From positions 1-36,799 of the forward strand of contig CACMXM010000007.1 of the NCBI GenBank assembly GCA_902617645.1: a stretch of 36,799 nt of DNA, in the 5' to 3' direction. Made by a program: the position numbers and the translations under genes. This document shows, piece after piece, positions 478 to 18,684 of this stretch. The notes below the pieces were generated by a model. The model was given only the letters and a program-made list of their open reading frames with translations. It made no database searches and had not been told where the DNA came from. Each line of letters starts with the position of its first letter. The first letter of the stretch is position 1. Origin of the DNA: an uncultured Pelagibacteraceae bacterium. Lineage in GTDB: Bacteria > Pseudomonadota > Alphaproteobacteria > Pelagibacterales > Pelagibacteraceae.

Positions 478-1506
478 TTATTCTTTATTTTCTAAATTAT
501 TTAGTTCTTCCTTTACCCTTTGCATCTTAGTTTTCATTTTTTCTGCTGAAGACGTAACTGCTTGTGCATCCGTATAAGCTTTTTTCAAATTATTTTCATG
601 CTTTGAGGTTGCCTCATTCAGTTGGTCTATTGAGTTAGTTAAAGCTTCAAGATGTTTAACAAACATTTTTGCTTTTTGATCTCCTTCAATTTGATTAAAA
701 CCTAAAAGTATTGCACTACAATAGGCTGAAAAAGTTGAAGGACCCATAAAAGTAACTTTAGTTGCTTCTTGTACCTTAGATATCCATAGTTCCTTTTCTT
801 CATTCACATGTGTTGTTACCTCATGATAAAGACCTTCAGCTGGAATATAAATACAGGCAAAACCAGCACTTATTGAACTATCAACGTATTTTTTATTTAC
901 TTCTTTGGCTTTGTCTCGGTAATCATTAATTATTTTTTTAAATAAATCTTCTTTTTCTTTATTTATTCTTTGCTGTTCTATTTCATCTGTAGTTTCAACT
1001 TTTCTTAATTCCAAAAGTCTTTCATAGGATGTTTTAGGCCAATGTGCATCGATAGGTAAATACAAACCTGTTGGATGCTTTATTGCAAATTCAACACTAA
1101 GACTTTTACCATCTTTTTGTATGGTTAGATTTTTTACCCATTGTTTTTCATAAACAAGACCAGAATTTTTAAACAAACTCTCTAGTAATAATTCACCAGT
1201 TTTACCAAACCGTTTACTGCCTGTAAGGCTGTCTATTAGCCTTTGATGTTCTTTTAAGATTTGATCTGACTTGGTCTCAAGTACACCTTTGTTTGTTCCA
1301 GCATCTTTAGAAATAGTTGTTAAAGTATCTGAAAGATCTTTTTTTACTTGATCAACCCTAGCATTAATATCTTTAATTATGTCATCTTTAAACCCTTCGT
1401 GATCCGATTTACTATAAACGTCACCATCGTTTTTCTTTTTTATAAAAAATAATGCTAATACAATAATTATAACTACGATTAATGCTAAATTAATATAATC
1501 AATCAT
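478..1506 (-). CDS. rmuC: RmuC-family DNA recombination protein
   Basis: RmuC-family proteins are membrane-anchored, predicted-nuclease-fold proteins that limit DNA rearrangement at inverted repeats in E. coli; the biochemical activity is poorly defined. This 342-residue protein has the expected layout: one N-terminal transmembrane helix (about residues 5-22), a coiled-coil linker (about 35-95), then the RmuC domain (about 95-300), which includes the family segments FGKTGELLLE, LPIDAHWPK and FACIYIPAEGLY. It ends in another coiled coil. It is shorter than E. coli RmuC (about 475), mainly in the coiled coils. AGGAAAG before the ATG supports the start. The start overlaps the preceding small gene by 8 bp and the next gene follows after 7 nt, so it sits in a compact minus-strand operon beside the defence locus. 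Confidence 0.9.
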   Translation of the reverse strand: MIDYINLALIVVIIIVLALFFIKKKNDGDVYSKSDHEGFKDDIIKDINARVDQVKKDLSDTLTTISKDAGTNKGVLETKSDQILKEHQRLIDSLTGSKRFGKTGELLLESLFKNSGLVYEKQWVKNLTIQKDGKSLSVEFAIKHPTGLYLPIDAHWPKTSYERLLELRKVETTDEIEQQRINKEKEDLFKKIINDYRDKAKEVNKKYVDSSISAGFACIYIPAEGLYHEVTTHVNEEKELWISKVQEATKVTFMGPSTFSAYCSAILLGFNQIEGDQKAKMFVKHLEALTNSIDQLNEATSKHENNLKKAYTDAQAVTSSAEKMKTKMQRVKEELNNLENKE

Positions 1507-2791: not shown

Positions 2792-5425
2792 ATGAATGAT
2801 GAATTTTTCAACAAAATTATTTCTGACGACAAAACGATTTCAAAATTAATAACTAATAAAGACGAGGATAAAAATCATAGAATATTTTTTTTGATAAATA
2901 GAATAATAAGTAATTTTAAAAATGATTTAATTATAGTAAGTCCTAACAATAAAGACCTATCATTTATATCAACGATATACTCATGTTTAGTTTCATATTA
3001 CAATAATTATGAAAATAAAATCTCTAACTTTGAGAATTGGTTAAAACCAGGAACATATGTAGAGCTTATCTCAAGCGGTGAATATGATGGAACTATTTTT
3101 AAATATTTGGGAAGAAAAGATAATGGTATTGAATTAGAGACAGTGCCCAATCAAAGAGATCATATGCCAGGTAAAATTTGGCAAAAGGTAGATAATATTC
3201 TTCAATTTTCTCCAACAAGTAAAAGAAAAAACAAATCAAACAAAGTGGTGTCAAAAGTTGGAAAGGCTATAGTTCCAAACATAGATAAAATTTTAGGAAT
3301 AAAAAGTTTTAATAATCCAATGATATATCAAAATGAATTAATTTTTTTAAACACAAAAATTGACTTTGAAAACAAATTATATGCATCAGCAATATTTAAG
3401 GATAATAAAGCCTATCAAATTAACGATTTGATTTCATTTGATTATATCAATGACTTCGGTGAATTAGAAAATCCAGTAAAACTAGAAGACAAAATTATAA
3501 CAAAAAATCTTTTATTAGCTCCAAAAATTTCAAATATTTATAATTATTTTGTTAATCATGATTTTAATAAAACTATTATCTGTCAAGATATAAAAAAAGT
3601 TTCAAATCATAAAAATTACATACAATATAGGCAGATTAAAAAAATTCGACCAAATTCAAAATTTTTAATTTTCGCTAGCGATAGTGATTATGAAATTATT
3701 AAAGATTTTAAGGAAAAAAATAATATAGATATCTATAAATTTTTTAACAACGATATAAAGAAACTTTATTCGGAAAATAAACTTTGGGTTAATTCTTTAC
3801 AATCAAAAATTATTTCTAACAAAAAATATGAATTTGAAAAAAGAATAGTTACTATCAAAGTAAAAGAGCAAAAGTTTGATGAGATCGATAATCTATTTAC
3901 TCACATTAATAAGATCGTTAAAAAAGAAAATACTGATACTCAAACAGATATAAAGATTATATTAGCCGCAATTAATAACTTAAGATTTAAGATTAAAGAT
4001 CATATTTTTGGATTTCCAACTAATTTGATAAATGAAATTAAAGAAAAAATTAGAAGTTTGCTTATAGAAATAAAATCTAGACAAACAGAATTAAAAGAAA
4101 CTTTATATGATCAAATTATAAAATTAGTAAATAAATTTAACGAGATTCCCCTTGATGGCAAATTAATTTTTGATGCAAGATTAAAAGAATTTCATGAATT
4201 ACTTAAAATATATAATCCAGAAAATACAATAATTTATACATATAATAAAGACAGAAAAGATTATTATGAGAAAAACATTAAAAAATTTTGGAACTTTGAT
4301 CATAAAAGTATATTAAATTTAAATTCCGAGGTAAGTTTTGATAATCTGATTATTCCATCTGAGATAATTACAAGAGATATCAATAAACTAATTAATTCTA
4401 AGAAGTATAAAAACTTTTATTTCATCGGATCAGAAACTTTAATAAAAAAGATGAATTATATTAAACAAAATTACGAATATAAGTGGCAAAATCTTGTTAT
4501 TAATGAAGATAGAAAAATCGAAATTTTAAGAGTTGATAGTTCTTATAAACAGGAACTTCAAAATCCGGATTTTATAAGAAAAAAAATAAATGAAAATATA
4601 AATATTTTAGATACCGAGGATTTTTATGAACAAGATGATGATGAGGATTATACAGATGACAAAAATGATGAAAAGACAGTTCCCACCATACCTATTACAT
4701 TATTTGGAGATCAAAAAATCTATTTAACTGAGAATTTTAGTACTATTATTTTAAATCCTATTTTTGATCAATATTCTTATAAACAATTTAATAAAAAAAA
4801 AAAATCTGAGGAAATTGAGGAAGATGACATATTTATGATAAGAGACTCATCTGATAGAGATATATTAGAAACAGAGTCATCAATTCTTTATGCGCATCGA
4901 AAAATTTCATACTCACATTTAAAAAGTATAGCTTTTAGTACTAGAGACGAAATTTTTAAATCATTTGGGATAAATGTAGATATTGGTAAATTAAGTGATT
5001 TATTAAAAAAACAAGGATGGAAAGGGAGCAACCAAACATTAAGAAATTTAATATCTGGCGAAACTAAGTGTCCAGAAAAACACAGAGATATTGATAGGAT
5101 TTTAAAAGTTTGTGAAATTAATAATCCAAAAAAATATAATTATGAAAAATCATTATCAAAAAAAATATTAAACCATAAAAAAGAATATGATAAGTTACGT
5201 ATTACAGCTGGGAAAAATATTACACCAAAAATCTACAAAGCTTTAAGATCAAATCCAAATATATCTTTTGATGGTTATCCGTTAAGAGTTGACTATAATT
5301 CTGATGGATCCATATCTCTAGGAAAAGAAAATTCAGATAAGCCAGAGGCATGGATTGTACAAGTTAAAAAAATCAATAAAGATAGGAAAGTAAAAAAAAA
5401 TTACAATATTGTTAATAGACTATGA
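2792..5425 (+). CDS. drmE: Probable DrmE-like DISARM protein (877 aa)
   Basis: This is the first gene of the plus-strand defence operon; its TGA overlaps the next ATG by 4 bp. DrmE is the class 2 DISARM subunit of unknown biochemistry, about 800 residues in known systems. I assign it mainly by size and position before drmA and drmB in a locus that also has a cytosine methylase, as class 2 systems do. I cannot confirm homology by eye. Visible features: an N-terminal strand-like part with LIIVSPNNKD (about residue 47); alternating hydrophobic strands near 290-310 and 475-560 (IIYTYNKDRKDYYEK, LIIPSEI, FYFIGSE) that resemble a RecA-like or helicase fold without Walker motifs; an acidic stretch at 607-628; and a possible helix-turn-helix at about 733-775. 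A 12-A run lies near 4793-4804. No Shine-Dalgarno precedes the ATG. Confidence 0.55.
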   Translation: MNDEFFNKIISDDKTISKLITNKDEDKNHRIFFLINRIISNFKNDLIIVSPNNKDLSFISTIYSCLVSYYNNYENKISNFENWLKPGTYVELISSGEYDGTIFKYLGRKDNGIELETVPNQRDHMPGKIWQKVDNILQFSPTSKRKNKSNKVVSKVGKAIVPNIDKILGIKSFNNPMIYQNELIFLNTKIDFENKLYASAIFKDNKAYQINDLISFDYINDFGELENPVKLEDKIITKNLLLAPKISNIYNYFVNHDFNKTIICQDIKKVSNHKNYIQYRQIKKIRPNSKFLIFASDSDYEIIKDFKEKNNIDIYKFFNNDIKKLYSENKLWVNSLQSKIISNKKYEFEKRIVTIKVKEQKFDEIDNLFTHINKIVKKENTDTQTDIKIILAAINNLRFKIKDHIFGFPTNLINEIKEKIRSLLIEIKSRQTELKETLYDQIIKLVNKFNEIPLDGKLIFDARLKEFHELLKIYNPENTIIYTYNKDRKDYYEKNIKKFWNFDHKSILNLNSEVSFDNLIIPSEIITRDINKLINSKKYKNFYFIGSETLIKKMNYIKQNYEYKWQNLVINEDRKIEILRVDSSYKQELQNPDFIRKKINENINILDTEDFYEQDDDEDYTDDKNDEKTVPTIPITLFGDQKIYLTENFSTIILNPIFDQYSYKQFNKKKKSEEIEEDDIFMIRDSSDRDILETESSILYAHRKISYSHLKSIAFSTRDEIFKSFGINVDIGKLSDLLKKQGWKGSNQTLRNLISGETKCPEKHRDIDRILKVCEINNPKKYNYEKSLSKKILNHKKEYDKLRITAGKNITPKIYKALRSNPNISFDGYPLRVDYNSDGSISLGKENSDKPEAWIVQVKKINKDRKVKKNYNIVNRL

Positions 5426-7251
5426 TTTTAATACCCCCCTATTGTCATCACGAAACACCGAATAGTGAAAGAAAAGTTTTTGAAAAACTCAAAAATGATA
5501 AGAATCCAAGAACAAAAAATTGGATCGTTTATCATTCTTTAAATTATCCAGTTAATATAAAAAAAAAGGGTAGATTATCTTATACATATTTTGGCGAGTC
5601 TGATTTTTTAATTTTAGCAAAGGACATTGGAATAATAAATATAGAGGTTAAAGGTGGATCAGTGACATGCGAAAATGGAATATGGACCATATCGAATAGA
5701 ATAGAAAAAAAAAAATTAAATAAAAGTCCAATCAAACAAGCACATGATACAAAATATGATATTCAGAGATACATAAAAAAAAAATTCAACAAAAAATATC
5801 CTCAGGAATATTTGGTAATTTTTCCAGATTGCAGTTCTGAGGGAATTCAGGATAATATTGAATTCTCTAAAGAAAATTTGCTAGATGTAGATCAATTTTA
5901 TGGAAATTTTTCCGAAAAATTATTTTCAATAACAAGAAATATGTTGAGTGGGGGTGAAATAAATGAGTTTAATAATATTGAATTTAATAAGGTTCAATTT
6001 TATTGCAGACCAAATTTTTATTCCTATGTCAAACAATCTACAATTTTAAAAGAAAGTGAACATGAAATCAATAAATATACAGAAGACCAATTAAGTGTAT
6101 TAGAAAATTTAGCTAATGAACCAAGGTTATTGATCACTGGTAGCCAAGGAACAGGAAAAACTGCCATGGCTGAGGAGATTATTAATATTTTTGGAAATTC
6201 CTATAACAATATATTATTTATTAATAGCGGGAGATTAGCAAACGTAAATACAAAAATAAAATTTTCAGAAAGATTTAATAATATTACTTTTACTACTTAC
6301 AATAAATTTTTAAGAAATATAAACAAAAATTTCAATTCAGTCTTAAATCTACCTATTGAATTTATAGATTCAAATAATACTCTAACAAAAAGCGCATATA
6401 GTATTCTAAAAAATAATCAGACAAATAAATATACCTATGATTTAATAATTATTGATGAAATGCAACATTGTTTCTTTTATGATGACTTTTATTTATTAAT
6501 AGATAAAATTTTAAAAAACGGATTAATAGATGGAAAATATTATTTTTTTGGAGATTTTGATAATCAAAATATTATTGGAAAAAAAATTGACAAACAGCTT
6601 TTAACAGACAGAGATCCTAAACAGAATTTACAAAATTATAAAGGTATTCACTTATGGCATAATGTTAGAAATTCAGAGGATGTAGCTTTAGAAGCTCCAA
6701 TTATTTCAGGGTTATATGATGATACACCTTTGCCTTATACAATTAAAAAAACAAAAGGCGTTGTAAACCATTCTTTTTGCAAAAATGAAAATGATAAAAA
6801 AGAAAAATTAATCAATATCTTAAAAAAATTAAAAAAAGAAAAAGTGTTAGGTAATGATATAGTAGTTTTATCAAATTATACTCTTCAAAATAAAAAATGC
6901 GTAATGTCCTCCTTAGATATTTCAGAAATTTATAATATTTGTGATTTGTCTAATGTCAGAGATGATAAATTATTAGAAGATGCAATTAGAAATCTTAACA
7001 AAAAAGAGACTATATTTTTTTCAACTGCTTTAGCTTTTCAAGGATTAGAGAGCAAAATAGTTATTTATATTGATCCTTTAGACATGGATTATTCAAATAT
7101 TGATGGAAAAAAAACAAGTGATGCATCACATTTAACCCTGTTTAATGCGATGGGAAGGGCAAATACAATTTTATACTTATTATGGGATAAACACTATGAA
7201 AGTTGGTATAATAATAGATTAAAACTGTTAGGAAAATTGACACCAAAATAA
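5422..7251 (+). CDS. NERD-domain nuclease fused to a UvrD-like helicase (609 aa)
   Basis: The N-terminal part (about 1-130) matches the NERD nuclease-related domain: E16 in NSERKVFE, D61 in GESDFLI and the E75-V-K77 of INIEVKGG give the spaced acidic-acidic-lysine set of a PD-(D/E)XK-type fold. The C-terminal part is a superfamily 1 motor: Walker A GSQGTGKT (240-247), Walker B IIDEMQH (D345, E346) with the DE-Q pattern of UvrD helicases, and a late motif FNAMGRA (574-580) where UvrD proteins carry the arginine-finger motif VI. It overlaps drmE by 4 bp and drmA by 1 bp, so it is an integral member of the operon. As far as I know it is not one of the canonical DISARM subunits (DrmA, B, C, D, E, MI, MII). 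It occupies the locus that lacks DrmC and may supply the nuclease; that role is inference. Confidence 0.85.
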   Translation: MILIPPYCHHETPNSERKVFEKLKNDKNPRTKNWIVYHSLNYPVNIKKKGRLSYTYFGESDFLILAKDIGIINIEVKGGSVTCENGIWTISNRIEKKKLNKSPIKQAHDTKYDIQRYIKKKFNKKYPQEYLVIFPDCSSEGIQDNIEFSKENLLDVDQFYGNFSEKLFSITRNMLSGGEINEFNNIEFNKVQFYCRPNFYSYVKQSTILKESEHEINKYTEDQLSVLENLANEPRLLITGSQGTGKTAMAEEIINIFGNSYNNILFINSGRLANVNTKIKFSERFNNITFTTYNKFLRNINKNFNSVLNLPIEFIDSNNTLTKSAYSILKNNQTNKYTYDLIIIDEMQHCFFYDDFYLLIDKILKNGLIDGKYYFFGDFDNQNIIGKKIDKQLLTDRDPKQNLQNYKGIHLWHNVRNSEDVALEAPIISGLYDDTPLPYTIKKTKGVVNHSFCKNENDKKEKLINILKKLKKEKVLGNDIVVLSNYTLQNKKCVMSSLDISEIYNICDLSNVRDDKLLEDAIRNLNKKETIFFSTALAFQGLESKIVIYIDPLDMDYSNIDGKKTSDASHLTLFNAMGRANTILYLLWDKHYESWYNNRLKLLGKLTPK

Positions 7252-10200
7252 TGAAAATTAAGAATGCTATAGAAGCTCGTGAATATATTATTGAAGAATT
7301 GAAGAGAACATTTGTTGGTCCCGGAAAAGGACATTTTATCAAAGATATAGCTTCGTTTCAATTTGATCCAAAAAACATAGACAGACATAAACAAGAGATT
7401 TTAGAACAAAGTCCTAAGCAAACATATCTTTCAGGACTTTTATATCCACAAAAATTAAATGATGATAATTTTGAGCAAAATAATGAAGACGAAGAGGATG
7501 AGAATGCACAAGATAACATTAACGACGAAAATAGTACAATTGAGAAAAACTTTTCAGAGCTTGATGCATCTCAATTAGAAATAAATGAAAACGATGTTGA
7601 AAATGATAATCAAATAGACAACAATAGAGACATAGATCTAACAAATGAGTATAAACAAAGCGCTATTGGATTGTCTGTCTTAATTAAAGTTCCTGAAACC
7701 TTAGTTATTCGAATAAATGACATGGGGCTATATAGAAATCTGAAAAAAGATATTCCTCAGGAAATATTGATAATATGTTTATTTTTGTCGAAATTTGCTA
7801 AAGATAAAAAATCATATGATTGGTTTAAAAATAATTTCTTAATTAAAAATAACCAAAGAGGAAAAATTCATTTATTCTTATTTCACATATTTAATATAAG
7901 AGTTAATAGAATTAAAAATATTGAAGATTATTACGATAAGTATTTTAAATTTAGAAAGGGATGGAAAAATAGAATAAATAGTGAATATGATCGCATATTT
8001 TTGAAATATGGATCCCAAGACTTTGAATATTTATCTCAAATAGTAAAAAAAATTTTAAATACACAAATAAAAAATAATGAAAATAATAAAGATCAAGAGG
8101 AGGATGCTGTTGGATATGCCAGAGAAAAAATAAATTCTTCAATTATTATTCAAAAAAGAGAATTATTAAGTAAAAAAAGATTTATTGAAAAAATTTTTGA
8201 AAAACAAAATGGTGAAAAAATACCACTTAAATTATCAATAACAATAAGAGAATCAAAAAAATCAGAAGATATTAAATATCTCACATTAGCCATAGTTAAT
8301 ATAAATGAATATGATGAAAAAATTCCTTTAAATAAAATTTTTTTCCAATCTAATTTTTCAATTGAGGATGAGAATAATAAACCAATTTTTTTAGGTTTTG
8401 ATGACATAAATAAAAAAGATTTGGATCCAGAAGAACAATCAATTTATTTGCTTCATCATTTAAGAGAAAATTATGCTATCGGTCACGGTTGTTCAGTTAA
8501 TTGGTTAATGAATAGTAATAATGAATGTATTAAGGTTTTCAGTGAAGTTATTCCTGTAAGCGAAGTTAGGCCAATAACTGCTGTAAAAATACCAAATATA
8601 AATCTGAGTATGAAAAATTTTTCTGAAAATATAGATTTTGCTATAGATGAGTTATCAAAACTTATTAATTTATATAGTGAATGGCTTTCAAATGAAAAAA
8701 AATACGGAGAAAAATTAGATGATAGTATTTTTAAGAATGCTTCAAAAAAAAATTTAGAAAATTGTTACTTGATCCTAAATAGAATTAATGAGGGACTTGA
8801 AATTCTTAAAAAAGATAAAGTTATTCAAAAGGCATTTAAACTTATGAATCAAGCAATGTATATGCAGCAGGTACATTATATAATTGATCCAAAACAATTT
8901 GAAAAAAATATAAATTACGATCAGATTTTAAATGAACTTGAAAAAGGTCAATGGAGAGCGTTCCAAATCTGTTTTATTTTATTAAATATTAAATCTATAT
9001 CAGACCCAAATTGTTCTGATAGAGAGATTGTAGACCTTATTTGGTTTCCTACAGGTGGTGGAAAAACAGAAGCATATTTAGGATTATCAGCTTTAGTAAT
9101 TTTTTTAAGAAAATTAAAAAAAAAAAATAGTATCGGTTCAGCAATTTTGATGAGATATACTTTAAGATTATTAACAACTCAACAATTTCAAAGAGCATCA
9201 TCCTTAATTTGCGCATGTGAAAAAATAAGAAGAACAAATGAAGAAGAATTTGGTAAAAATATTATTTCCATTGGTCTTTGGGTAGGTAGCAATGTAACGC
9301 CTAATGATTTAAAAGATGCAGAATTTAATTTAAGTGAATTATTAGAGCCGACAGAAGAAAAAGATGCAACTAAAAATAAGTTTATAATTTTAAAGTGTCC
9401 TTGGTGTAATACCAAAATGAAGCCTGAGGACTACCAAATATATAAAAAAGAATTTAAATTTGTATGTGGTAATACTGTTTGTGATTTTAGTAATATAAAT
9501 AATAGCTTACCCATTAAAGTTATTGATACAGAAATTTACAAAAATCCACCAACTTTGTTGATTGGTACAATTGATAAATTTGCAACACTTCCGTGGAGAG
9601 AGGAGGCAATCAATTCTTATGATAGCGCAAGAGACAAAAATTATGAACCGCCAGATTTAATTATTCAAGATGAATTACATTTAATATCAGGGCCGTTAGG
9701 GTCTGTAGCGGGTATGTATGAAATAATAATAAAAGCAATATCCGAATCAAGTTCGAAAGATAATTCTAGCAAAAAAGCAAAAATTATTGGCTCAACCGCG
9801 ACTATAAGTAGAGCAAACTTACAAATAAAAAATTTATATGGAAGAACTTGTAATATTTTTCCACCACAAGCAAATAAGCTTGAAGACTCATTTTTTGCAA
9901 AAGAAATTAAAGATCCTAAAATTTTAGGGAGAAAGTATGTGGGTCTATTCGCTCCCTCTGCTTCATCTATGGAAGTAACTCTATCGCAAATTATGTCAAC
10001 ATTAGTTTTAGCAGGCGGATATTTAAAAGAAAAATCTGGAGAGAATTTAGATGTGTACGACCCTTATTGGACCAATTTAATATATTTTAATAGTATAAGA
10101 GAGTTAATGAAAGGCTCGTCGCTTATTGACGGCGACGCGAGTGAATTAACAAGAAATAAATGGCTTAAAAAAGGAATATTACCTAGCTTCTTTGGTGGTA

Positions 10201-11207
10201 AAATTGTTAAATATGTTGGAAATTATTTGGTATCCAAAAAATATAGTATTAATGAAATTGTTACTCAAAACAATCAAAATTATATTTGTGTTCAAGATCA
10301 TGAGGCTGGCACCAAGGCAGTTATAGAAAATATGTATTGGGAAAAGTACATAAAAAATATTGACGATATAAAAGAGAAAAAAAATAATAAAAAATTAATT
10401 TTTGAGAATGAAAGTTTAAAAAAAAGTTATGAAAATCTAAGGCGTATTTTTTCTAATGATACCTCAGAACTTACATCAAGAATTGATAGTTCTTTAATCC
10501 CGAAAGAACTTGAAATTTTAGAATTAAATGCAAATGAAGATGAAAGCCTCAGCGCTTGTTTAGCAACTAACATGATTCAAGTTGGTATTGATATAGGAAG
10601 ATTATCTTTAATGACAATTGTAGGACAACCAAAAACAACATCTGAATATATTCAAGCATCAAGCAGGGTTGGTAGAGAAAAAGAAAAACCTGGCCTTGTA
10701 ATTACTCAATTAAGTCATACAAAATTAAGGGACAGATCTCATTACGAAAAGTTTTCAAGCTATCACCAAAATCTTTATAAATTTGTTGAACCTACTAGCG
10801 TAACAGCACATTCAGACCCTGTCAGAAAGAGGTGTTTGCCAGCAATTGTAATATTTTTGATCAGATTTTGGTCTAAAAAGCATAGAAAATTACCAAATAT
10901 ACCTGATGATAAAATTATTGAAAAAGTAAAAAAATTTATATGTGAGTTTGTTGAAAATGCTGAACCAGATCATAAAGAGGAAATAAATAAAACAAGACAA
11001 GAAATTGATTACATAATTTCTAGATGGAAAAGCGATACTCCAGAAGACTATGGATCAATTGGAACAAAAATTGTAAAAACAAAAAAGTCTGTTTTAATGC
11101 GTCCTTCTGGAAGTGAAAAAAAATTAGAAGGAAATTCTTTTGAAACCCCAACATCTATGAGAAATGTTGATAAAGAGTGTGCGGCCTCATTAATACAATC
11201 GGATTAA
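7251..11207 (+). CDS. drmA: DISARM helicase DrmA
   Basis: DrmA is the large superfamily 2 helicase that forms the DISARM core with DrmB and engages invading DNA. The 1318-residue protein has Walker A TGGGKTE (601-607), DELH (807-810) followed by the family-like HLISGPLGS, motif III GSTATIS (847-853), and a C-terminal helicase domain with SSRVGRE (about 1137-1143). A four-cysteine, probably zinc-binding cluster lies between the motifs (C716, C719, C739, C744). The N-terminus carries the DrmA-like YLSGLLYP, then an acidic, Asn-rich low-complexity stretch (about 71-130). TAATG joins it to the NERD-helicase gene and a single base separates it from drmB. The reading frame appears intact, so the system may be active. 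Confidence 0.9.
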   Translation: MKIKNAIEAREYIIEELKRTFVGPGKGHFIKDIASFQFDPKNIDRHKQEILEQSPKQTYLSGLLYPQKLNDDNFEQNNEDEEDENAQDNINDENSTIEKNFSELDASQLEINENDVENDNQIDNNRDIDLTNEYKQSAIGLSVLIKVPETLVIRINDMGLYRNLKKDIPQEILIICLFLSKFAKDKKSYDWFKNNFLIKNNQRGKIHLFLFHIFNIRVNRIKNIEDYYDKYFKFRKGWKNRINSEYDRIFLKYGSQDFEYLSQIVKKILNTQIKNNENNKDQEEDAVGYAREKINSSIIIQKRELLSKKRFIEKIFEKQNGEKIPLKLSITIRESKKSEDIKYLTLAIVNINEYDEKIPLNKIFFQSNFSIEDENNKPIFLGFDDINKKDLDPEEQSIYLLHHLRENYAIGHGCSVNWLMNSNNECIKVFSEVIPVSEVRPITAVKIPNINLSMKNFSENIDFAIDELSKLINLYSEWLSNEKKYGEKLDDSIFKNASKKNLENCYLILNRINEGLEILKKDKVIQKAFKLMNQAMYMQQVHYIIDPKQFEKNINYDQILNELEKGQWRAFQICFILLNIKSISDPNCSDREIVDLIWFPTGGGKTEAYLGLSALVIFLRKLKKKNSIGSAILMRYTLRLLTTQQFQRASSLICACEKIRRTNEEEFGKNIISIGLWVGSNVTPNDLKDAEFNLSELLEPTEEKDATKNKFIILKCPWCNTKMKPEDYQIYKKEFKFVCGNTVCDFSNINNSLPIKVIDTEIYKNPPTLLIGTIDKFATLPWREEAINSYDSARDKNYEPPDLIIQDELHLISGPLGSVAGMYEIIIKAISESSSKDNSSKKAKIIGSTATISRANLQIKNLYGRTCNIFPPQANKLEDSFFAKEIKDPKILGRKYVGLFAPSASSMEVTLSQIMSTLVLAGGYLKEKSGENLDVYDPYWTNLIYFNSIRELMKGSSLIDGDASELTRNKWLKKGILPSFFGGKIVKYVGNYLVSKKYSINEIVTQNNQNYICVQDHEAGTKAVIENMYWEKYIKNIDDIKEKKNNKKLIFENESLKKSYENLRRIFSNDTSELTSRIDSSLIPKELEILELNANEDESLSACLATNMIQVGIDIGRLSLMTIVGQPKTTSEYIQASSRVGREKEKPGLVITQLSHTKLRDRSHYEKFSSYHQNLYKFVEPTSVTAHSDPVRKRCLPAIVIFLIRFWSKKHRKLPNIPDDKIIEKVKKFICEFVENAEPDHKEEINKTRQEIDYIISRWKSDTPEDYGSIGTKIVKTKKSVLMRPSGSEKKLEGNSFETPTSMRNVDKECAASLIQSD

Positions 11208-11208
11208 G

Positions 11209-13161
11209 ATGATTAAAAATAAGCCATATTATAAAAAAAATAATAAAGAAAAAAAGTTAAAAAGATCTATTAGAAGAGGTGATGTGGTTTCGATAAACGG
11301 TGTGGGCTCAATTTATTCTTTCAAAGATCATTTTAGTAGATCTGGAAACCAAGACTCACTTATGTTAGCAGGACTTGAATTTTGGCAGAAAAGAATGCCA
11401 AGTGGAATACCAGAGGAGTTAATTATTGATGAACCACGCTTGAAAAGCATTTTAAATAAAGATTTTTTTGTATTACCACCAGATTTTAGAGAAAATACTG
11501 ATAATAAAAAATTAGAAAGAAAACGCCTTCCTTATTTTAGATTTCCTAATTGGCATTATTGCCCACATCAATATTGTGGTTTGATGAAGAGATTAGGACC
11601 AACAAGTGAAGGAAACCAAAAATGTGAAAAAAAACACAAAAACTCAAAAAATTTAATACCGGTTAGATTTTTAGTAATTTGTAAAAATGGTCATATTGAT
11701 GATTTTCCATTTTTTGAGTGGGTTCATTCTAAAAAAAATACAGAAGAAGATAAAAAAAGTTACAATCCTGATCATTGCAATGACTCAACTCTTATTTATC
11801 AAGCAGGAAAAGGAGGTAATAACTCAGTATATGATATCAGAATTATATGCTCAAATTGTAAAAATTCTAGGTCTCTAGCGGAAGCGTTCAGAAAAGATGG
11901 TAAAAATCCTTTCAAAGATATTTTTGATAATGAAAATTCTTGCCAAGGAAAACGTCCTTGGCTTGGATCTAATGAGTCAAACGAAAATTGTGTGAGTTTA
12001 CCCGAGGTAGTATTAAGGAATGCAATTAAAGTTTATTATCCAGTAATAAAAAGTTCAATTTATATACCAATTGACACTAAATCTGAAAGAAAAATACATG
12101 AATTTTTAAACAATATTAATCACTGGTCCAAAATAAAAAAAAGGATTGAAGATAAAGAAAAACTAAAATCTTGGTTAGAAGGGTATTTAGATGATCCAAA
12201 ATATAAAGAATTAGATTTTGAAAAAGTATACAAATCAATTTTAGAGAAAGAATTATCTGAAAATAAAATATCTTTAGAAACTAAGAAAGATGATGACGAA
12301 GCATACAGGTTTCAAGAGTATCAATTTATTAAAAATCCCGAAACAATAGAAAGCCCATATTTAGAACTTAGCATTAAAAAAAAACCTATTAAAGAATACG
12401 GTATATTGGAAAAATTTTTCTCGAATATTTACTTAGTCGACAGATTAACAGAAACTAGAGTTCAAGTTGGATTTACTAGATCAACACCCTACGAAGAAGG
12501 CGTTGATAAAAATTTGATTCAAAAATTAACAACAGATCAATCTATAAAGTGGTTACCAGCAACAATTGTCAAAGGGGAGGGGATTTTTTTCGAATTTAAC
12601 AAAAAAGCAATTCAAGATTGGGAGAAACAATTTAACTTTAATGATTTGAATGAAATAGTTAAAAACTTAAATGAATTAAGGAAAATAAGAGGTTTAAGTG
12701 AAAATAGAAATATAAAAAATAAATTTTTTTTAATACATACATTTGCTCATTTGATGATAAATCAATTAAGCTATTCTTGTGGTTATGGAAGTTCAGCCTT
12801 GAGAGAAAGAGTTTATTGCAACTCAAAATCTAATGAAAATTCGATGGAAGGCGTTTTGATATATACAGCATCAGGAGATTCCGAGGGAAGTCTTGGAGGT
12901 TTAGTTCGAGAAGGTGAACCATTGAATATATTAAAAACAATAAGAAAAATGCTAAGAAAAGCAAATGTTTGCTCATATGATCCAGTTTGCATTGATCATA
13001 AACAACAAGGACTTAATGGCACAAATGCATCTGCATGTCATGCTTGCTCATTTTTACCTGAGACCTCATGCGAAGAATCAAATCAACTATTAGATAGAAC
13101 AACAATCATTGGTAACTTTAAAAATAATTCTAGGGGTTATTTTGAAGATTTAATTAAATAA
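11209..13161 (+). CDS. drmB: DISARM core protein DrmB (DUF1998)
   Basis: DrmB is the DUF1998 partner of DrmA; the two form the DISARM core complex. This 650-residue protein has the N-terminal DrmB pattern RRGDVVSINGVGSIY, a Cys/His cluster (C118, C123, C139, H143), and RFLVICKNGHIDDFPF (about 153-168), typical of the family. The C-terminal DUF1998 region (about 505-630) contains HTFAHLMINQLSYSCGYGSS, YTASGDSEGSLGGLV, and a Cys set ending CHACSFLPETSC, likely a zinc site. It starts one base after the drmA stop. Its TAA (13159-13161) directly abuts the stop codon of the convergent methyltransferase, leaving no room for a terminator. Confidence 0.9.
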   Translation: MIKNKPYYKKNNKEKKLKRSIRRGDVVSINGVGSIYSFKDHFSRSGNQDSLMLAGLEFWQKRMPSGIPEELIIDEPRLKSILNKDFFVLPPDFRENTDNKKLERKRLPYFRFPNWHYCPHQYCGLMKRLGPTSEGNQKCEKKHKNSKNLIPVRFLVICKNGHIDDFPFFEWVHSKKNTEEDKKSYNPDHCNDSTLIYQAGKGGNNSVYDIRIICSNCKNSRSLAEAFRKDGKNPFKDIFDNENSCQGKRPWLGSNESNENCVSLPEVVLRNAIKVYYPVIKSSIYIPIDTKSERKIHEFLNNINHWSKIKKRIEDKEKLKSWLEGYLDDPKYKELDFEKVYKSILEKELSENKISLETKKDDDEAYRFQEYQFIKNPETIESPYLELSIKKKPIKEYGILEKFFSNIYLVDRLTETRVQVGFTRSTPYEEGVDKNLIQKLTTDQSIKWLPATIVKGEGIFFEFNKKAIQDWEKQFNFNDLNEIVKNLNELRKIRGLSENRNIKNKFFLIHTFAHLMINQLSYSCGYGSSALRERVYCNSKSNENSMEGVLIYTASGDSEGSLGGLVREGEPLNILKTIRKMLRKANVCSYDPVCIDHKQQGLNGTNASACHACSFLPETSCEESNQLLDRTTIIGNFKNNSRGYFEDLIK

Positions 13162-14172
13162 TTAAGCAACCTTTTTATAATTAATATTCTTTGTCATCAA
13201 ATACTTTAAAATATTATAGCAAATTCTCTCAACAACATTGATCGGAACAGCATTTCCAGCTTGTTGATAAGCTTGGGTATTTGATACGGGTATTTTGAAT
13301 TTTTCAGGAAATCCTTGAAGCCTAAAAACTTCACGAGGAGAAAGCATTCTTGGATTTTTATTTTCTCCCCGATAAATTAAACATTCGCCACCATCTTTAA
13401 AATATCTAGATGATATTGTTCGTGTATATTTATCTCGTGGGTAACTTAACTTATATCCAAAACCTTTGTTAGCTTTTTCGTTTCTTAATCTTCTTTTTTT
13501 ATGACTTTTCCAAAGTAGATTAGAGATAATATATTTTTTTTTTGGATAACGATCCAAAAAATCAGAAACAATCGTTTTTTTGAAAGTAGGTTTCGGATAA
13601 ATAAAATCGGTATTTTTATCCAAAAACCCAACAATAAATATTCTTTTTCTTTGTTGTGCTAATCCAAAATCTTTTGCATCTAAAATCTCAGGCTCTGGAA
13701 CATAATAATTATTTCTAAGTAATTTAAGTATTAATTTTAAAATGTTGCCATTATCATAATTCATTAAGTGCTGAACATTCTCTAAGAGAAAAGCCTTTGG
13801 TTTTTTAATGTTAATAATATCAAGAATATTAAAAAACAAATCACCTTGTTTTTTATCCTCTAAACCATGTTTCATATCTAATGATTTTCTTTTTGAAACT
13901 CCCGCTTTTGAAAAAGGCTGACAAGGAAACCCGGCAAGTAAAATATCATGATCCGGTATTCTTTTTTTTATTTCACTTTTTTTTAAAGTTTTTAAATCCT
14001 CTATCAAATTTGTATTTGGAAAATTAGCCTGATATGTCTGCTGACAATAAATATTAATTTCTGAATACAACTTACAATTATCCTTAAACCCTAACTTTTT
14101 AATTGCTTTATCAAGTGCAATTCTCATTCCGCCAACTCCAGCAAATAAATCTATTGAAGATATAATTTTCAT
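13162..14172 (-). CDS. drmMII: C5-cytosine DNA methyltransferase (DrmMII-like)
   Basis: It transfers methyl from S-adenosylmethionine to cytosine C5 in DNA; in class 2 DISARM this marks host DNA as self. The 336-residue protein has the full motif set: DLFAGVGG (8-15, cofactor site), PCQPFSKAG with catalytic C84, ENV (131-133), QQRKRIFIVG (173-182) and GNAVP (306-310). The target-recognition segment (GFGYKL ... TRTISSRYFKDGGECLI) resembles that of the Dcm group, whose site is CCWGG, the site reported for the Bacillus DISARM methylase; the specificity here is inference. It is transcribed against the operon, with stop codons abutting, from its own promoter (TATAAT at 14189-14194). A solitary Dcm-type enzyme is possible, but its position makes DISARM membership likely. 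Confidence 0.85.
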   Translation of the reverse strand: MKIISSIDLFAGVGGMRIALDKAIKKLGFKDNCKLYSEINIYCQQTYQANFPNTNLIEDLKTLKKSEIKKRIPDHDILLAGFPCQPFSKAGVSKRKSLDMKHGLEDKKQGDLFFNILDIINIKKPKAFLLENVQHLMNYDNGNILKLILKLLRNNYYVPEPEILDAKDFGLAQQRKRIFIVGFLDKNTDFIYPKPTFKKTIVSDFLDRYPKKKYIISNLLWKSHKKRRLRNEKANKGFGYKLSYPRDKYTRTISSRYFKDGGECLIYRGENKNPRMLSPREVFRLQGFPEKFKIPVSNTQAYQQAGNAVPINVVERICYNILKYLMTKNINYKKVA

Positions 14173-14188
14173 TTGTGATTCTTTTTTA

Positions 14189-14216
14189 ATTATATCTATT
14201 TTTCAACAAATTTCAG
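14189..14216 (-). promoter_or_regulatory. Candidate promoter of the methyltransferase gene
   Basis: On the minus strand, CTGAAA (14216-14211; 4 of 6 to the -35 consensus), a 16-nt spacer and a perfect TATAAT (14194-14189) end 16 nt before the ATG at 14172. The leader would be only about 10 nt, so the gene may be nearly leaderless. A separate promoter would let modification be expressed independently of the effector operon. Confidence 0.5.
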
Positions 14217-14237
14217 TCTTAATAATAACTAGATGTT

Positions 14238-14810
14238 ATGATTAAAGAAACTGTGCGAATATTTTTATTTTTTTTTCTTCATCTTTTAGTTTTTTTAATA
14301 TTAATCATAGCCTCATCAAATGCTGAAGAAAAATTGTTTACCTGCAAGCCTACTATAGCAGGACTTCAATTAGATAACGGCAATTATTACTTTGAAAATG
14401 ATTATGACGATAAAACGCCATTAATAGATAAACTAACTACTACACAATTCATTTTAAAAGAAGAGAATATATTTTATAAAAATAATAAAAATAGAATCTT
14501 TGAACAACTCATACCATATAAGTCTTTCTTGAATATAGATTTACCAAGTGACGATCTTAATTCAATATCAAAAGCTATAAAAATTTTTCAAAAATGGGAT
14601 AAAATTTTAGATCTACCAGCATTAACAAAAGACTTTGAAACATATATTTATCTTTATTCATTCCATCATAAGGATAATAATTTAAACCATTCATTAAAGC
14701 GTATTAGTATAGATGCTAAAAACTTTATGGTCTCAGAAATTACTGTGCCGATGACTAGCAAAACACCGCCTTATTTTGTAGCTAGATTATGTACAAATTC
14801 TCGATTTTAG
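14238..14810 (+). CDS. Secreted protein of unknown function (190 aa)
   Basis: The N-terminus has a basic start (MIKETVR), a long hydrophobic core (about residues 8-26) and an Ala-X-Ala-like end (ASSNA before EEKLF), a plausible Sec signal peptide for export to the periplasm. The mature part has one Cys near its start (FTCKP) and one near the C-terminus (RLCTNSRF), which could pair as a disulfide. I recognise no domain. It is divergent from the methyltransferase with a 65-bp gap, so it is probably not part of the DISARM locus. No strong Shine-Dalgarno is seen before the ATG. Confidence 0.7.
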   Translation: MIKETVRIFLFFFLHLLVFLILIIASSNAEEKLFTCKPTIAGLQLDNGNYYFENDYDDKTPLIDKLTTTQFILKEENIFYKNNKNRIFEQLIPYKSFLNIDLPSDDLNSISKAIKIFQKWDKILDLPALTKDFETYIYLYSFHHKDNNLNHSLKRISIDAKNFMVSEITVPMTSKTPPYFVARLCTNSRF

Positions 14811-14896
14811 ATAGATATTTTATGAGAGAATTAATTAAATATTTATTTTTATTTTTTGTTTCTTTTAATATTAAAATTATATTATAGAAATATTAA

Positions 14897-15724
14897 ATGG
14901 ATATTGATTTAAAAAAGTTTGAAACAGAAGGATACTTGGGACCATTTAGTATAAATGATCAGTCTTATTTTAATTCTTTACTTAAAGAAAGGTATATCCC
15001 AAAAAATTTGTATACTTGGTATAAGTCTCCTCATGAAAAATCACAAAAACTTGTAAAAATAGCCAGTGATAAAAATATATTAAGTAAATTGAAAATTTTA
15101 CTTAAAGAAAATATTTTGCTCTGGGGAAGTCTTTTTGTAGATCAAAAGCCCGACGGTCAACATGCATGGCATCTAGATGTTGAGCATGGCAGTTGGAATG
15201 GGGTAACAGTCTGGATAGGATTAAATAATTTATCCGAAAAAACTTCATTATCAATAATCACTCATACACATTTATTAAAAACCGCCCCGCTAGAATTGAA
15301 AAAAAAGCTCAATGTAGATCATACAAAAGATCAAGCAGTTTTGGAAGAAGCAAAAAAATTAGATCCACGATGTGAATTAAAGAAATTTTATCTTAAAAAT
15401 GGAGAATTTATTATTTGGAGTGGTAGAATTTGGCATTCAACTTTAAATCAAAGTAGCAGAATAAGACAATCAATAATTTTACAATACTGCACACCAAATA
15501 ACAAGGTAAAGATTCCTACTAACTTTGATTATCCAAATACAGCTTGGTCAAAAACTGAGCCACCCTGTATTTTAATATCAGGAAAAGATGAATTTAATTT
15601 CAACAAAGTTTTATTAAAAAAAGATTTAAAGTTTATTGATAGTTTCAAAATACTAACTGTATATAGTTTAAGATATAAAATTAGTCATTTTTTACGAAAA
15701 TTCAGAAAGGTTTTAAGCAACTAA
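14897..15724 (+). CDS. PhyH-family Fe(II)/2-oxoglutarate dioxygenase
   Basis: Members of the phytanoyl-CoA dioxygenase (PhyH) superfamily hydroxylate or otherwise oxidise small molecules using iron, oxygen and 2-oxoglutarate. In this 275-residue protein the iron facial triad is visible as H92-x-D94 (HAWHLDVEH) and H180 (WSGRIWHST), with R188 or R190 (SSRIRQS) placed to bind 2-oxoglutarate. The surrounding WIGLNNLSE and NGEFIIWSGRIWH segments fit the double-stranded beta-helix. The substrate cannot be read from the sequence; relatives act on lipids, amino-acid derivatives, secondary metabolites and phosphonates. It is convergent with the pnp operon, with a 14-nt gap, and has no Shine-Dalgarno. 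It lies between the defence locus and the housekeeping block, so it may be accessory. Confidence 0.8.
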   Translation: MDIDLKKFETEGYLGPFSINDQSYFNSLLKERYIPKNLYTWYKSPHEKSQKLVKIASDKNILSKLKILLKENILLWGSLFVDQKPDGQHAWHLDVEHGSWNGVTVWIGLNNLSEKTSLSIITHTHLLKTAPLELKKKLNVDHTKDQAVLEEAKKLDPRCELKKFYLKNGEFIIWSGRIWHSTLNQSSRIRQSIILQYCTPNNKVKIPTNFDYPNTAWSKTEPPCILISGKDEFNFNKVLLKKDLKFIDSFKILTVYSLRYKISHFLRKFRKVLSN

Positions 15725-15738
15725 TATAAAGATATTAA

Positions 15739-15969
15739 TTAGCAACAACCGCAGCTTTTCTTTTCTTTTTTTTTTGATGAAGTAGAATTATTAGATTTCA
15801 TTTCTTCTAATTCTTTTTTTTGTTTTTCAAGAGCTTTTTTTTCTTGTAAAATTTTATCTTCAAAATAAGCATATAGCGATGTAAAGCCAAGCTTCGTTGC
15901 TTTTTTTTCCTCGTAGCCTCTTCGGCCCTTTAAGTTTTCAATTATTTTTATTATTTCTTGATTTTGCAT
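15739..15969 (-). CDS. Small coiled-coil protein with CGCC tail (76 aa)
   Basis: An N-terminal helical part (MQNQEIIKIIENLKGRRGYE) is followed by a coiled-coil-like Lys/Glu stretch (about 38-58), a Ser/Asn linker, and a lysine-rich tail ending KKSCGCC. The terminal cysteines could bind metal or form a redox pair. It starts 10 nt after pnp stops and is the last gene of the nusA-pnp run, so it is probably co-transcribed. No known family recognised. Confidence 0.65.
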   Translation of the reverse strand: MQNQEIIKIIENLKGRRGYEEKKATKLGFTSLYAYFEDKILQEKKALEKQKKELEEMKSNNSTSSKKKEKKSCGCC

Positions 15970-15979
15970 ATTTCATTTT

Positions 15980-18052: not shown

Positions 18053-18056
18053 TTTT

Positions 18057-18305
18057 TTACTTTCTTATATTTAGTTTACTTATTACATCCTTATAAGACT
18101 CTAATTTATTTCTCTTAAGATAATCTAATAATTTTTTTCTTTTATTGACTGCTTTCAACAAACCTACTGATGAATGTTTGTCTTTTTTAAACAAATTCAT
18201 ATGTTTTGATAATGTCTCAATTTTTTCTGTTAATAGTGCTATTTGTACTTCGGATGAACCAGTATCTTTATCGTGTATAGCTACTTCTTTGGCCTTCTTA
18301 TTCAT
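18057..18305 (-). CDS. rpsO: 30S ribosomal protein S15
   Basis: S15 binds the central domain of 16S rRNA early in small-subunit assembly. The 82-residue protein shows the core motifs [21 protein letters not shown] and [22 protein letters not shown], and is slightly shorter than the usual 88-89, with the missing residues at the N-terminus. It overlaps rbfA by 8 bp and precedes pnp by 4 nt. truB, which normally lies between rbfA and rpsO in this cluster, is absent. Confidence 0.97.
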
Positions 18306-18684
18306 GTTTTTCCTGTCTGTTAGTATTTTTTATTAAGTTTTCTATTTTTTCCGCATAATCAAATGACTCGTCTTTTACAAATAATATTTTTGGAAGAAAT
18401 TTCATTGTAATTCTTTTTGAAAGTGTTTTTCTAACCAAAAATGAAAAATCTTTCAAAACATCTATAATCTCATTTGCATTTTTACCACCAAGCGGTAATA
18501 CAAATGCTTTAGCGGTTTTAAGATCTGGACTCATCCTTACCTCTGTAACCGTTATGTTGCTTGTTTCAATATTGGGCAATTTTGCTTCACCTCTCATGAA
18601 TATGTTGCCTAAAGCTTGTTTTATCATTTCCCCTACTCTTAATTGTCTTTGTGAAAGAGTTCTAGCATTTTTTTTTGATTTCAT
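18298..18684 (-). CDS. rbfA: Ribosome-binding factor A
   Basis: RbfA helps mature the 5' end of 16S rRNA and binds the 30S subunit. The 128-residue protein has the family hallmarks: RQLRVGEMIKQALGNIF at the N-terminus and the central ITVTEVRMSPDLKTAKAFV, then LRKTLSKRITMKFLPKILF-type beta-alpha elements of its KH-like fold. It overlaps infB by 4 bp and rpsO by 8 bp, so translation of all three is probably coupled. Confidence 0.95.
   Translation of the reverse strand: MKSKKNARTLSQRQLRVGEMIKQALGNIFMRGEAKLPNIETSNITVTEVRMSPDLKTAKAFVLPLGGKNANEIIDVLKDFSFLVRKTLSKRITMKFLPKILFVKDESFDYAEKIENLIKNTNRQEKHE

What the first reader, a model, noticed from the sequence alone, without database searches (positions are those of the whole stretch)
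2792..14172. DISARM-like locus without DrmC but with a NERD-nuclease/UvrD-helicase inside the operon
DrmA, DrmB and a C5-cytosine methylase are clear from motifs, and a DrmE-sized protein leads the operon, so this resembles class 2 DISARM. The phospholipase-D subunit DrmC, usually counted with DrmA and DrmB as core, is absent: all four plus-strand genes are accounted for and none carries an HKD motif. In its place a NERD-helicase is joined to its neighbours by 4- and 1-bp overlaps. I infer a DISARM variant where the NERD nuclease replaces the DrmC nuclease, with a second helicase added.
Basis: partly seen in the sequence, partly recalled or inferred. Interest (0 to 1): 0.88.

Follow-up and report, generated by a model that had tools for sequence, protein, structure and literature searches.

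The report
DISARM variant with NERD nuclease-helicase
An ocean bacterium carries a relative of the DISARM anti-phage system that lacks the usual nuclease gene but has a predicted nuclease-helicase built into the operon, and similar arrangements recur in distantly related bacteria.

Summary
Window 2792-14172 encodes a DrmE-like protein, a NERD-helicase, DrmA and DrmB (+) and a DrmMII-type methylase (-), in a SAR11-type (Pelagibacteraceae) genome. No DrmC was found in this 68%-complete assembly or in seven other NERD-type genomes, one a complete single contig. The NERD-helicase is no passenger: in 397 family genomes the five that have it are the five with a strong drmA match, adjacent. A gene found by NERD-helicase sequence alone in a new genome (G968) also lay beside drmAB. 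A separate clade carries a NERD-helicase after drmB, in the drmC slot. Of 43 drmAB loci, 17 have a NERD-helicase, 9 DrmC, none both, 17 neither. Catalytic residues are invariant in 14 of 14. G009 also lacks any PLDc_2 match, so a borrowed PLD nuclease is unlikely there. 'Replacement of DrmC' is only partly supported: the two kinds lie on different DrmA branches. Verdict: a drmC-less DISARM-like lineage with its own nuclease-helicase, a new variant of a known kind. Function is untested.

The parts
2792..5425 (+). DrmE-like protein, 877 aa; first gene of the operon
   Evidence: NCBIfam NF038316 59.4 bits over residues 31-778 (cut-off 80), Pfam DrmE_C 19.1 bits (cut-off 27); homologues at 30-34% identity at the same place in L026, L027, L030. 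Low-confidence model (pLDDT 57.6): residues 348-570 resemble the second helicase domain of RIG-I/Hef-type SF2 helicases
5422..7251 (+). NERD-domain nuclease fused to an SF1 UvrD-like helicase, 609 aa; 4-bp overlap with the gene before, 1-bp with drmA
   Evidence: PF08378 at residues 15-135, 40.4 bits; helicase part of the family profile matches DNA helicase IV, UvrD, PcrA, SLFN11, GajB in PDB; E16, D61, E75, K77, K246, D345, E346, R416, R579 invariant in 14 of 14
7251..11207 (+). DrmA, SF2 (YprA-family) helicase, 1318 aa
   Evidence: PADLOC DrmA 1e-203; NCBIfam DISARM_DrmAS 2.6e-259; PDB 7s9v DrmA 3.9e-120
11209..13161 (+). DrmB, DUF1998/MZB protein, 650 aa
   Evidence: NCBIfam DrmB_fam 425 bits (cut-off 240), PADLOC DrmB 1.7e-76, Pfam MZB 33.9 bits
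13162..14172 (-). DrmMII-type DNA cytosine-5 methyltransferase, 336 aa, convergent with drmB
   Evidence: PADLOC DrmMII 5.5e-98, Pfam DNA_methylase 268 bits; same place and orientation in L008, L010, L028, L031; in L009 it precedes drmE instead

Best explanation
This is a drmC-less, DISARM-like anti-phage system in which a fused NERD nuclease and SF1 helicase is a dedicated part. Proposed working: DrmAB, gated as in known DISARM, loads on exposed single-stranded 5' ends of incoming phage DNA and moves along it. The NERD-helicase acts on the same DNA and supplies the cutting that DrmC is assumed to supply elsewhere. DrmE is a helper or sensor, and the cytosine methylase marks the cell's own DNA. 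Shown by computation: the gene set, its conservation, intact catalytic residues and no detectable DrmC. Inferred: all biochemical steps, the partnership with DrmAB, and the defence function.
For: Gene identities. Co-occurrence of NERD-helicase and a strong DrmA match in the same 5 of 397 family genomes. Order lead gene, NERD-helicase, DrmA, DrmB kept in Pelagibacteraceae loci, in G685, whose lead gene passes the DrmE-family cut-off (88.7 against 80 bits), and in G968. The gene before it overlaps the NERD-helicase by 4 bp in window, L008, L009, L053 and L137. G968 was found by NERD-helicase sequence alone and lay beside drmAB; its DrmA passes the curated DISARM cut-off, 988 against 950. NERD-helicases upstream of drmA group together (92% of 200 bootstrap trees) and score higher with each other than NERD-helicases outside DISARM do. 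Catalytic residues invariant in 14 of 14. No DrmC (PDLC02592) in 8 NERD-type genomes or 6 plasmid records. The single-contig, 100%-complete genome G009 has no PLDc_2 match at all. DrmAB loading on 5' overhangs: PMC9142583, passages and one section read.
Against: No experiment. NERD-helicases of the same broad family occur without drmA (8 of 12 genomes; L068). DISARM without DrmC is reported to keep working (PMC9142583), and in 17 of 43 loci here neither nuclease was seen, so the NERD part need not be the essential nuclease. Some Pelagibacteraceae copies have split frames (L010, L030, L031), which may be assembly errors or decay. The NERD-helicase model was too poor (pLDDT 59) to confirm the fold. 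PDLC02592 scored its positive-control plasmid only 33.9 bits, so a divergent DrmC could be missed. The drmC-slot NERD-helicases score lower (59-81 bits) with the Pelagibacteraceae profile than two non-DISARM ones (92-93 bits), so the two positional types need not share a role.
Confidence: 0.7

Rival explanations
1. The NERD-helicase is a loosely attached accessory module, as in other defence islands, and DrmAB with DrmE and the methylase work without it.
For: PADLOC lists NERD-helicases in other systems (RTasNERD-Hel, C3a187 NERD+UvrD). 8 of 12 Pseudomonadota genomes with relatives have no DrmA match; the regions of 5 of these 8 were read and hold none. In 17 of 43 drmAB loci neither NERD-helicase nor DrmC was seen.
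Against: Same place between the lead gene and drmA in distant genomes, often with overlapping ends; one-to-one co-occurrence in 397 family genomes; position-specific sequence clades.
Confidence: 0.2
2. The NERD-helicase senses or processes DNA ends for DrmAB (DrmC is dispensable in known DISARM), and protection comes from blocking replication; the NERD site trims ends rather than destroying phage DNA.
For: PMC9142583 reports that DrmC is non-essential and proposes blocking of replication. In the drmC slot of L056, L060 and L079 the helicase part occurs without a detected NERD domain (Pfam run for L056 and L079), so the helicase alone can be the conserved role there.
Against: NERD catalytic residues are invariant at 19-47% identity to the window protein, which argues for a used active site.
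Confidence: 0.25
3. A decayed DISARM that lost drmC by chance, with the NERD-helicase inserted by chance.
For: Copies with split frames exist (L010, L030, L031).
Against: The window operon is fully open, and a NERD-helicase beside drmAB recurs in Pseudomonadota, Actinomycetota and Deinococcota.
Confidence: 0.03
4. DrmC or another PLD nuclease is encoded elsewhere in the genome and does the work.
For: G000 is only 67.6% complete; PMC9142583 proposes host PLD nucleases as substitutes.
Against: No DrmC in 7 other NERD-type genomes, among them single-contig G009, which also lacks PF13091.
Confidence: 0.07

Closest known systems
DISARM class/type 2 (PADLOC: DrmA, DrmB, DrmC, DrmE, DrmMII)
   Same: DrmA, DrmB and DrmMII by profile; DrmE-family lead gene below cut-off
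   Different: No DrmC; a NERD-helicase inside the operon, which is not part of that definition
DISARM class/type 1 (DrmD, DrmMI, DrmA, DrmB, DrmC)
   Same: DrmA and DrmB core; the solved Serratia DrmA 7s9v is its relative
   Different: No DrmC, and no DrmD or DrmMI among the seven proteins scanned at 2792-15721; a different DrmA branch
RT-associated NERD-helicase of DRT systems (PADLOC RTasNERD-Hel)
   Same: Best PADLOC model for the NERD-helicase, 78.8 bits in the window and 56.6-198 bits in the seven others scanned
   Different: No reverse transcriptase among the neighbouring proteins scanned; sits with drmAB
TALON (Bell et al. preprint, PMC12458937)
   Same: A YprA-family helicase with a NERD nuclease (section read)
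   Different: [quoted passage not shown] here DrmA and DrmB are separate DISARM proteins and NERD is fused to a second helicase
Gabija GajB / UvrD-Rep-PcrA SF1 helicases
   Same: Helicase part of the NERD-helicase
   Different: No GajA match among the seven proteins scanned; NERD nuclease fused at the N terminus

Membership tests
DISARM type II (PADLOC definition, PMC9252829) | DrmA | tested here: met
   PADLOC DrmA 1e-203; NCBIfam DISARM_DrmAS 863.6 bits, under its 950 cut-off; G968 homologue 988, above it
DISARM type II (PADLOC definition, PMC9252829) | DrmB | tested here: met
   NCBIfam DrmB_fam 425 bits against 240
DISARM type II (PADLOC definition, PMC9252829) | DrmE | tested here: inconclusive
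   NF038316 59.4 bits against 80; PF24957 19.1 against 27; no PADLOC match. The lead gene of the related G685 locus passes (88.7)
DISARM type II (PADLOC definition, PMC9252829) | DrmMII | tested here: met
   PDLC02653 5.5e-98, next to drmB on the other strand
DISARM type II (PADLOC definition, PMC9252829) | DrmC (PLD nuclease) | tested here: not met
   No HKD motif in the operon; no PDLC02592 match in G000 (67.6% complete), G264, G396, G202, G009, G685, G673 or G968
DISARM type II (PADLOC definition, PMC9252829) | Anti-phage activity | not testable with these tools
   Needs an infection assay
DRT with NERD-helicase | Reverse transcriptase next to the NERD-helicase | tested here: not met
   PADLOC, Pfam and NCBIfam scans of the seven proteins at 2792-15721 show no RT; a Pfam scan of the three at 3-1822 shows none
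TALON | TPR-CSD and TATA-binding protein genes in the operon | tested here: not met
   Pfam of the seven proteins at 2792-15721 shows neither
NERD nuclease (PF08378) | Profile match over the curated cut-off, with conserved D...ExK residues | tested here: met
   40.4 bits against 22.1; E16, D61, E75, K77 in 14 of 14
NERD nuclease (PF08378) | Nuclease activity | not testable with these tools
   Needs purified protein

The most novel reading that the evidence does not exclude
A third kind of DISARM whose effector is a dedicated NERD helicase-nuclease, recruited to drmAB at least twice: once upstream of drmA (window type) and once in the drmC slot after drmB (Rhizobium/Azospirillum type), so that a motor-driven nuclease has independently taken the place of the PLD nuclease.
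Probability: 0.45. Interest if true: 0.72.

Novelty: new variant of a known kind. Interest (0 to 1): 0.62.

Why it matters
How DISARM destroys phage DNA is open: the structural paper says it has remained a mystery, because DrmC is dispensable and often missing, and suggests borrowed host PLD nucleases (PMC9142583, passages read). Here is a lineage with a built-in candidate nuclease, in one complete genome with no PLDc_2 match, which makes the question testable by point mutation. By PADLOC's published rule that type II needs DrmC (figure-legend passage) such loci would not be reported as type II. It also shows a large defence operon in some of the small-genomed SAR11 bacteria (5 of 397 genomes).

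Tried and rejected
AlphaFold model of the NERD-helicase (6-row alignment): mean pLDDT 59, pTM 0.35; Foldseek gave nothing at E<=0.001, so no fold claim rests on it. DrmE model: pLDDT 57.6; Foldseek and VIA-align point to RIG-I/Hef-type SF2 helicases, but Foldseek's TM-scores for its 22 matches at E<=0.001 are only 0.12-0.24: a lead only. PDB sequence search with the DrmE profile: 0 hits up to E = 1. hhalign of DrmE against lead genes of other NERD loci: L011 521 aa probability 76, L137 1109 aa 19, L053 507 aa 0.1, so the lead gene is not shown to be one family throughout.

Considered and rejected: that every NERD-helicase belongs to DISARM (8 of 12 genomes had no DrmA match; L068 has none in 18.7 kb). 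The very high scores of G673, G685, G000 and G009 are partly circular, as all four are in alignment A2; the held-out runs and the new genome G968 are the cleaner tests. With a profile of the drmC-slot type alone, some non-DISARM NERD-helicases outscore window-type ones, and with a Pelagibacteraceae profile two non-DISARM ones outscore the drmC-slot type, so the two positional types are not shown to be sisters. The Fisher test (p = 0.007) treats related loci as independent and is indicative only. The H-x-K-x4-D text search is loose: in NERD loci it also matches inside helicase, methylase, Cas4-like and other frames, among them an unassigned 499-aa frame of L137 (no NCBIfam or PADLOC match). With the window protein as tblastn query only 2 of 72,556 plasmid records match the NERD-helicase, one of them beside drmA (Rhodococcus opacus) and one not (Paracoccus versutus); the drmC-slot plasmid loci were not among them. 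Promoter and terminator scan: no more than in shuffles. A canonical Bacillus class 2 reference could not be obtained.
Full report
WHAT IS THERE. The window is one whole contig (C7, 36,799 bases) of an 856-kb, 48-contig genome estimated 67.6% complete. The six named relatives found with the NERD-helicase profile are all Pelagibacteraceae, so the host is a SAR11-type bacterium. At 2792-13161 four plus-strand genes lie end to end: a DrmE-like protein (877 aa), a NERD-helicase (609 aa), DrmA (1318 aa) and DrmB (650 aa). A cytosine-5 methylase of the DrmMII kind (336 aa) follows on the minus strand. The first two genes overlap by 4 bp and the next two by 1 bp. Profile matches: DrmA 1e-203 and DrmMII 5.5e-98 in PADLOC, DrmB 425 bits in NCBIfam (cut-off 240), NERD 40.4 bits in Pfam (cut-off 22.1). 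DrmA is under NCBI's equivalog cut-off (863.6 against 950 bits). The lead gene is DrmE-like only below the curated cut-offs (59.4 against 80 bits; 19.1 against 27).

DRMC IS NOT FOUND. A text search for H-x-K-x4-D in window ORFs of 150 aa or more finds only a 736-aa frame that I read as infB. The only PLDc_2 match in the assembled genome is a polyphosphate kinase. The PADLOC DrmC model PDLC02592 finds nothing in G000, G264, G396, G202, G009, G685, G673 or G968, nor in six plasmid records that carry a NERD-helicase beside drmAB; it does ring in the positive-control plasmid, though weakly at 33.9 bits. G009 is a single contig estimated 100% complete and has no PLDc_2 match at all; of the other three genomes searched, G396 and G202 have none and G264 has one 724-aa frame of the size of the polyphosphate kinase. 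This matters because the DISARM structure paper suggests that a host PLD nuclease stands in when DrmC is missing (PMC9142583, passages read).

CO-OCCURRENCE IN THE FAMILY. In 397 family genomes, 5 have the NERD-helicase and 8 have a DrmA match. Three of those 8 are weak partial matches (E about 1e-4, 443-aa frames) and are not counted as DrmA; the other five are the same five genomes. In G264 and G009 the order DrmE-like, NERD-helicase, DrmA, DrmB is intact with the methylase beside it; G396 is cut by a contig end inside drmE and has split drmA and drmB frames; G202 has a more distant set. A genome-collection scan gave six loci, all Pelagibacteraceae; three are the same places as already held, and L028, L030 and L031 are new. 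L010 with L028, and L008 with L030, are near copies. L010 (drmA, drmB), L030 (NERD-helicase) and L031 (drmE) have split frames, left as they are.

CO-OCCURRENCE BEYOND THE FAMILY. Of 398 Pseudomonadota genomes, 15 have DrmA at E<=1e-30. Two are not usable (G581, 3.4-kb contig; G404, 188-aa fragment). Of the 13 others, 4 have a NERD-helicase beside drmAB (G000, G009, G685, G673), 6 a DrmC (G745, G415, G675, G734, G432, G651; G734 by HKD motif and place only), 1 a helicase without NERD after drmB (G612) and 2 neither (G764, G619). On plasmids, 78 records match DrmA; I opened 23 of these 78, mostly the best-ranked, plus one NERD hit. NERD-helicases beside drmAB were seen upstream of drmA in Rhodococcus opacus and Deinococcus gobiensis, and after drmB in Rhizobium ruizarguesonis, Azospirillum ramasamyi, Rhizobium rhizogenes and Shinella. 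In all, 43 drmAB loci were compared (42, plus L137): 17 with a NERD-helicase, 9 with DrmC, 0 with both, 17 with neither. Four of the 17 'neither' loci (L056, L060, L067, L079) have a helicase without a detected NERD domain after drmB, and some are cut at the record's start next to drmAB (L055, L059), so 'neither' is an upper bound. Dropped before the count: L026, L027 and L029 (duplicates), L076 and L083 (fragments), L068 (no DrmA). Fisher p is 0.007, but the loci are related and were not drawn at random.

A BLIND TEST. I searched 327 Alphaproteobacteria with the G685 NERD-helicase alone. Three genomes matched at E<=1e-30: G000, G009 and one not seen before, G968. In G968 the gene lies between a 1109-aa DrmE-family protein (64.4 bits, cut-off 80) and drmA, with drmB next and a cytosine methylase on the other strand. 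Its DrmA passes the curated DISARM cut-off (988 against 950 bits). One new prediction, one correct.

LINEAGES. In the DrmA tree (42 rows, quick method, rooted at the midpoint for drawing only) the seven window-type Pelagibacteraceae loci and G685 form one group (97*), the five loci with NERD-helicase after drmB form one group (99*), G202 and Rhodococcus fall together in a neighbouring group with three 'neither' loci, and the DrmC loci fall elsewhere. In the NERD-helicase tree the 'upstream' set is one group in 92% of 200 bootstrap trees (support 89/90) and the 'downstream' set in 100%; NERD-helicases outside DISARM lie between them, with some long branches and a weak midpoint root. Two recruitments are therefore likely but not proven. 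With a profile of five Pelagibacteraceae sequences, the held-out upstream-type proteins score 112-200 bits, the non-DISARM ones at most 93, and the drmC-slot ones 59-81. NERD-helicases as such are not DISARM-specific: of 12 of 398 Pseudomonadota genomes with a relative at E<=1e-30, 8 have no DrmA match, and the regions of five of these were read without finding one.

THE PROTEIN. E16, D61, E75, K77 (the NERD nuclease site; its assignment is recalled knowledge of the PD-(D/E)xK superfamily), the ATP-binding G240...K246-T247, D345-E346-x-Q348, R416 and R579 are invariant in 14 of 14 aligned sequences at 19-47% identity to the window protein. The helicase part matches SF1 helicases of known structure: DNA helicase IV, UvrD, PcrA, SLFN11, GajB. 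PADLOC's best model is RTasNERD-Hel, described there as DRT; no reverse transcriptase was found among the window proteins scanned.

GENOMIC SETTING. In nine relatives whose region beside pnp was read, no frame of 90 aa or more matched the window genes on the operon side of pnp, and DNA similarity starts at about window 15,793 in the nearest and 15,974-15,990 in the other eight. The operon thus lies in a variable block beside pnp (the name pnp is my recognition of the gene at 15980-18052), together with an rmuC gene and a PhyH-type oxygenase gene; the block runs off the contig end.

HOW IT MOST LIKELY WORKS. From PMC9142583 (abstract, passages and one section read): DrmAB is held shut by a loop, opens on single-stranded DNA with a 5' overhang and needs ATP hydrolysis; DrmC is dispensable and did not co-purify. 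I infer that in this lineage the NERD-helicase is the nuclease that acts on DNA engaged by DrmAB, with the methylase protecting self DNA. That DrmC has been 'replaced' is one reading; a separate drmC-less lineage is as likely.

PRINT AND DATABASES. Searches of the held open-access library for DISARM with NERD, DISARM with drmC and DrmE, NERD domain, drmA/drmB with nuclease-related domain, NERD with helicase and anti-phage, DISARM-like with DUF1998, drmC with drmMII, and Pelagibacter with DISARM showed no paper whose listing describes a NERD-helicase in DISARM. The two that hold both DISARM and NERD were read in part: PMC12458937 places NERD in TALON and says the DISARM-like clade holds many uncharacterised classes (outline, passages, sections); PMC10952713 lists NERD for Mokosh and Nhi-like (passages). 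PADLOC's published rule for type II requires DrmC (PMC9252829, passage). Supplements and subscription papers were not seen, so an earlier mention is possible.

Noticed in passing
window 478-1506 (-): An RmuC-family gene (PF02646, 115 bits) in the same variable block, divergent from drmE. ShdA (Shield, RmuC-domain) homologues are reported inside DISARM-like operons of Pseudomonas (PMC10270631, passages). No homologue of the window gene was found by BLASTP in the other compared loci.
   Followed up: partly
window 2792-5425: The DrmE-like protein may be a worn-out SF2 helicase of RIG-I/Hef type: residues 348-570 match RIG-I's second helicase domain region (best Z 10.5, rmsd 6.7 over 208 residues), on a low-confidence model.
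   Followed up: partly
L056 7652-9028, L060 13541-14920, L079 5052-6569: drmAB loci with an SF1 helicase but no detected NERD domain in the drmC slot; L079 carries DUF5710 (72.5 bits, cut-off 26.5) and L056 a match below cut-off (21.2). A possible further DISARM-like type.
   Followed up: no
L058 (Tsukamurella plasmid) 4243-20565: A cytosine methylase, a RelA/SpoT-domain protein, a UvrD-helicase without NERD, DrmA, DrmB, a DEAD/DEAH helicase and a restriction subunit M in one row: a mixed DISARM-like operon with a possible nucleotide-signalling enzyme.
   Followed up: no
L011 2000-5819: In the distant Pelagibacteraceae set (G202) drmB is followed by a methyl-directed restriction enzyme (AspBHI-type) and a Cas4-like PD-(D/E)xK nuclease.
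   Followed up: no
window 7251-11207, DrmA residues about 70-135: A stretch rich in D, E and N, read directly from the translation; it might correspond to DrmA's autoinhibitory loop. The PDB alignment starts only at residue 337, so this is untested.
   Followed up: no
L063 6114-8474, L064 5436-8222, L070 6350-8362, L078 7219-9732, L086 6686-8557: All five loci with a NERD-helicase after drmB also carry a second UvrD-like helicase just before drmA. No NERD part was seen in it, but Pfam was run only for L070.
   Followed up: partly
L138 3-11934 (G686): A NERD-helicase outside DISARM beside frames of 1000 and 2094 aa, perhaps another defence operon.
   Followed up: no
window 14897-15724 (+): A PhyH/JmjC-like oxygenase gene (Pfam PhyH 28.6 bits, cut-off 22) between the operon and pnp; no match beside pnp in nine relatives.
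   Followed up: partly
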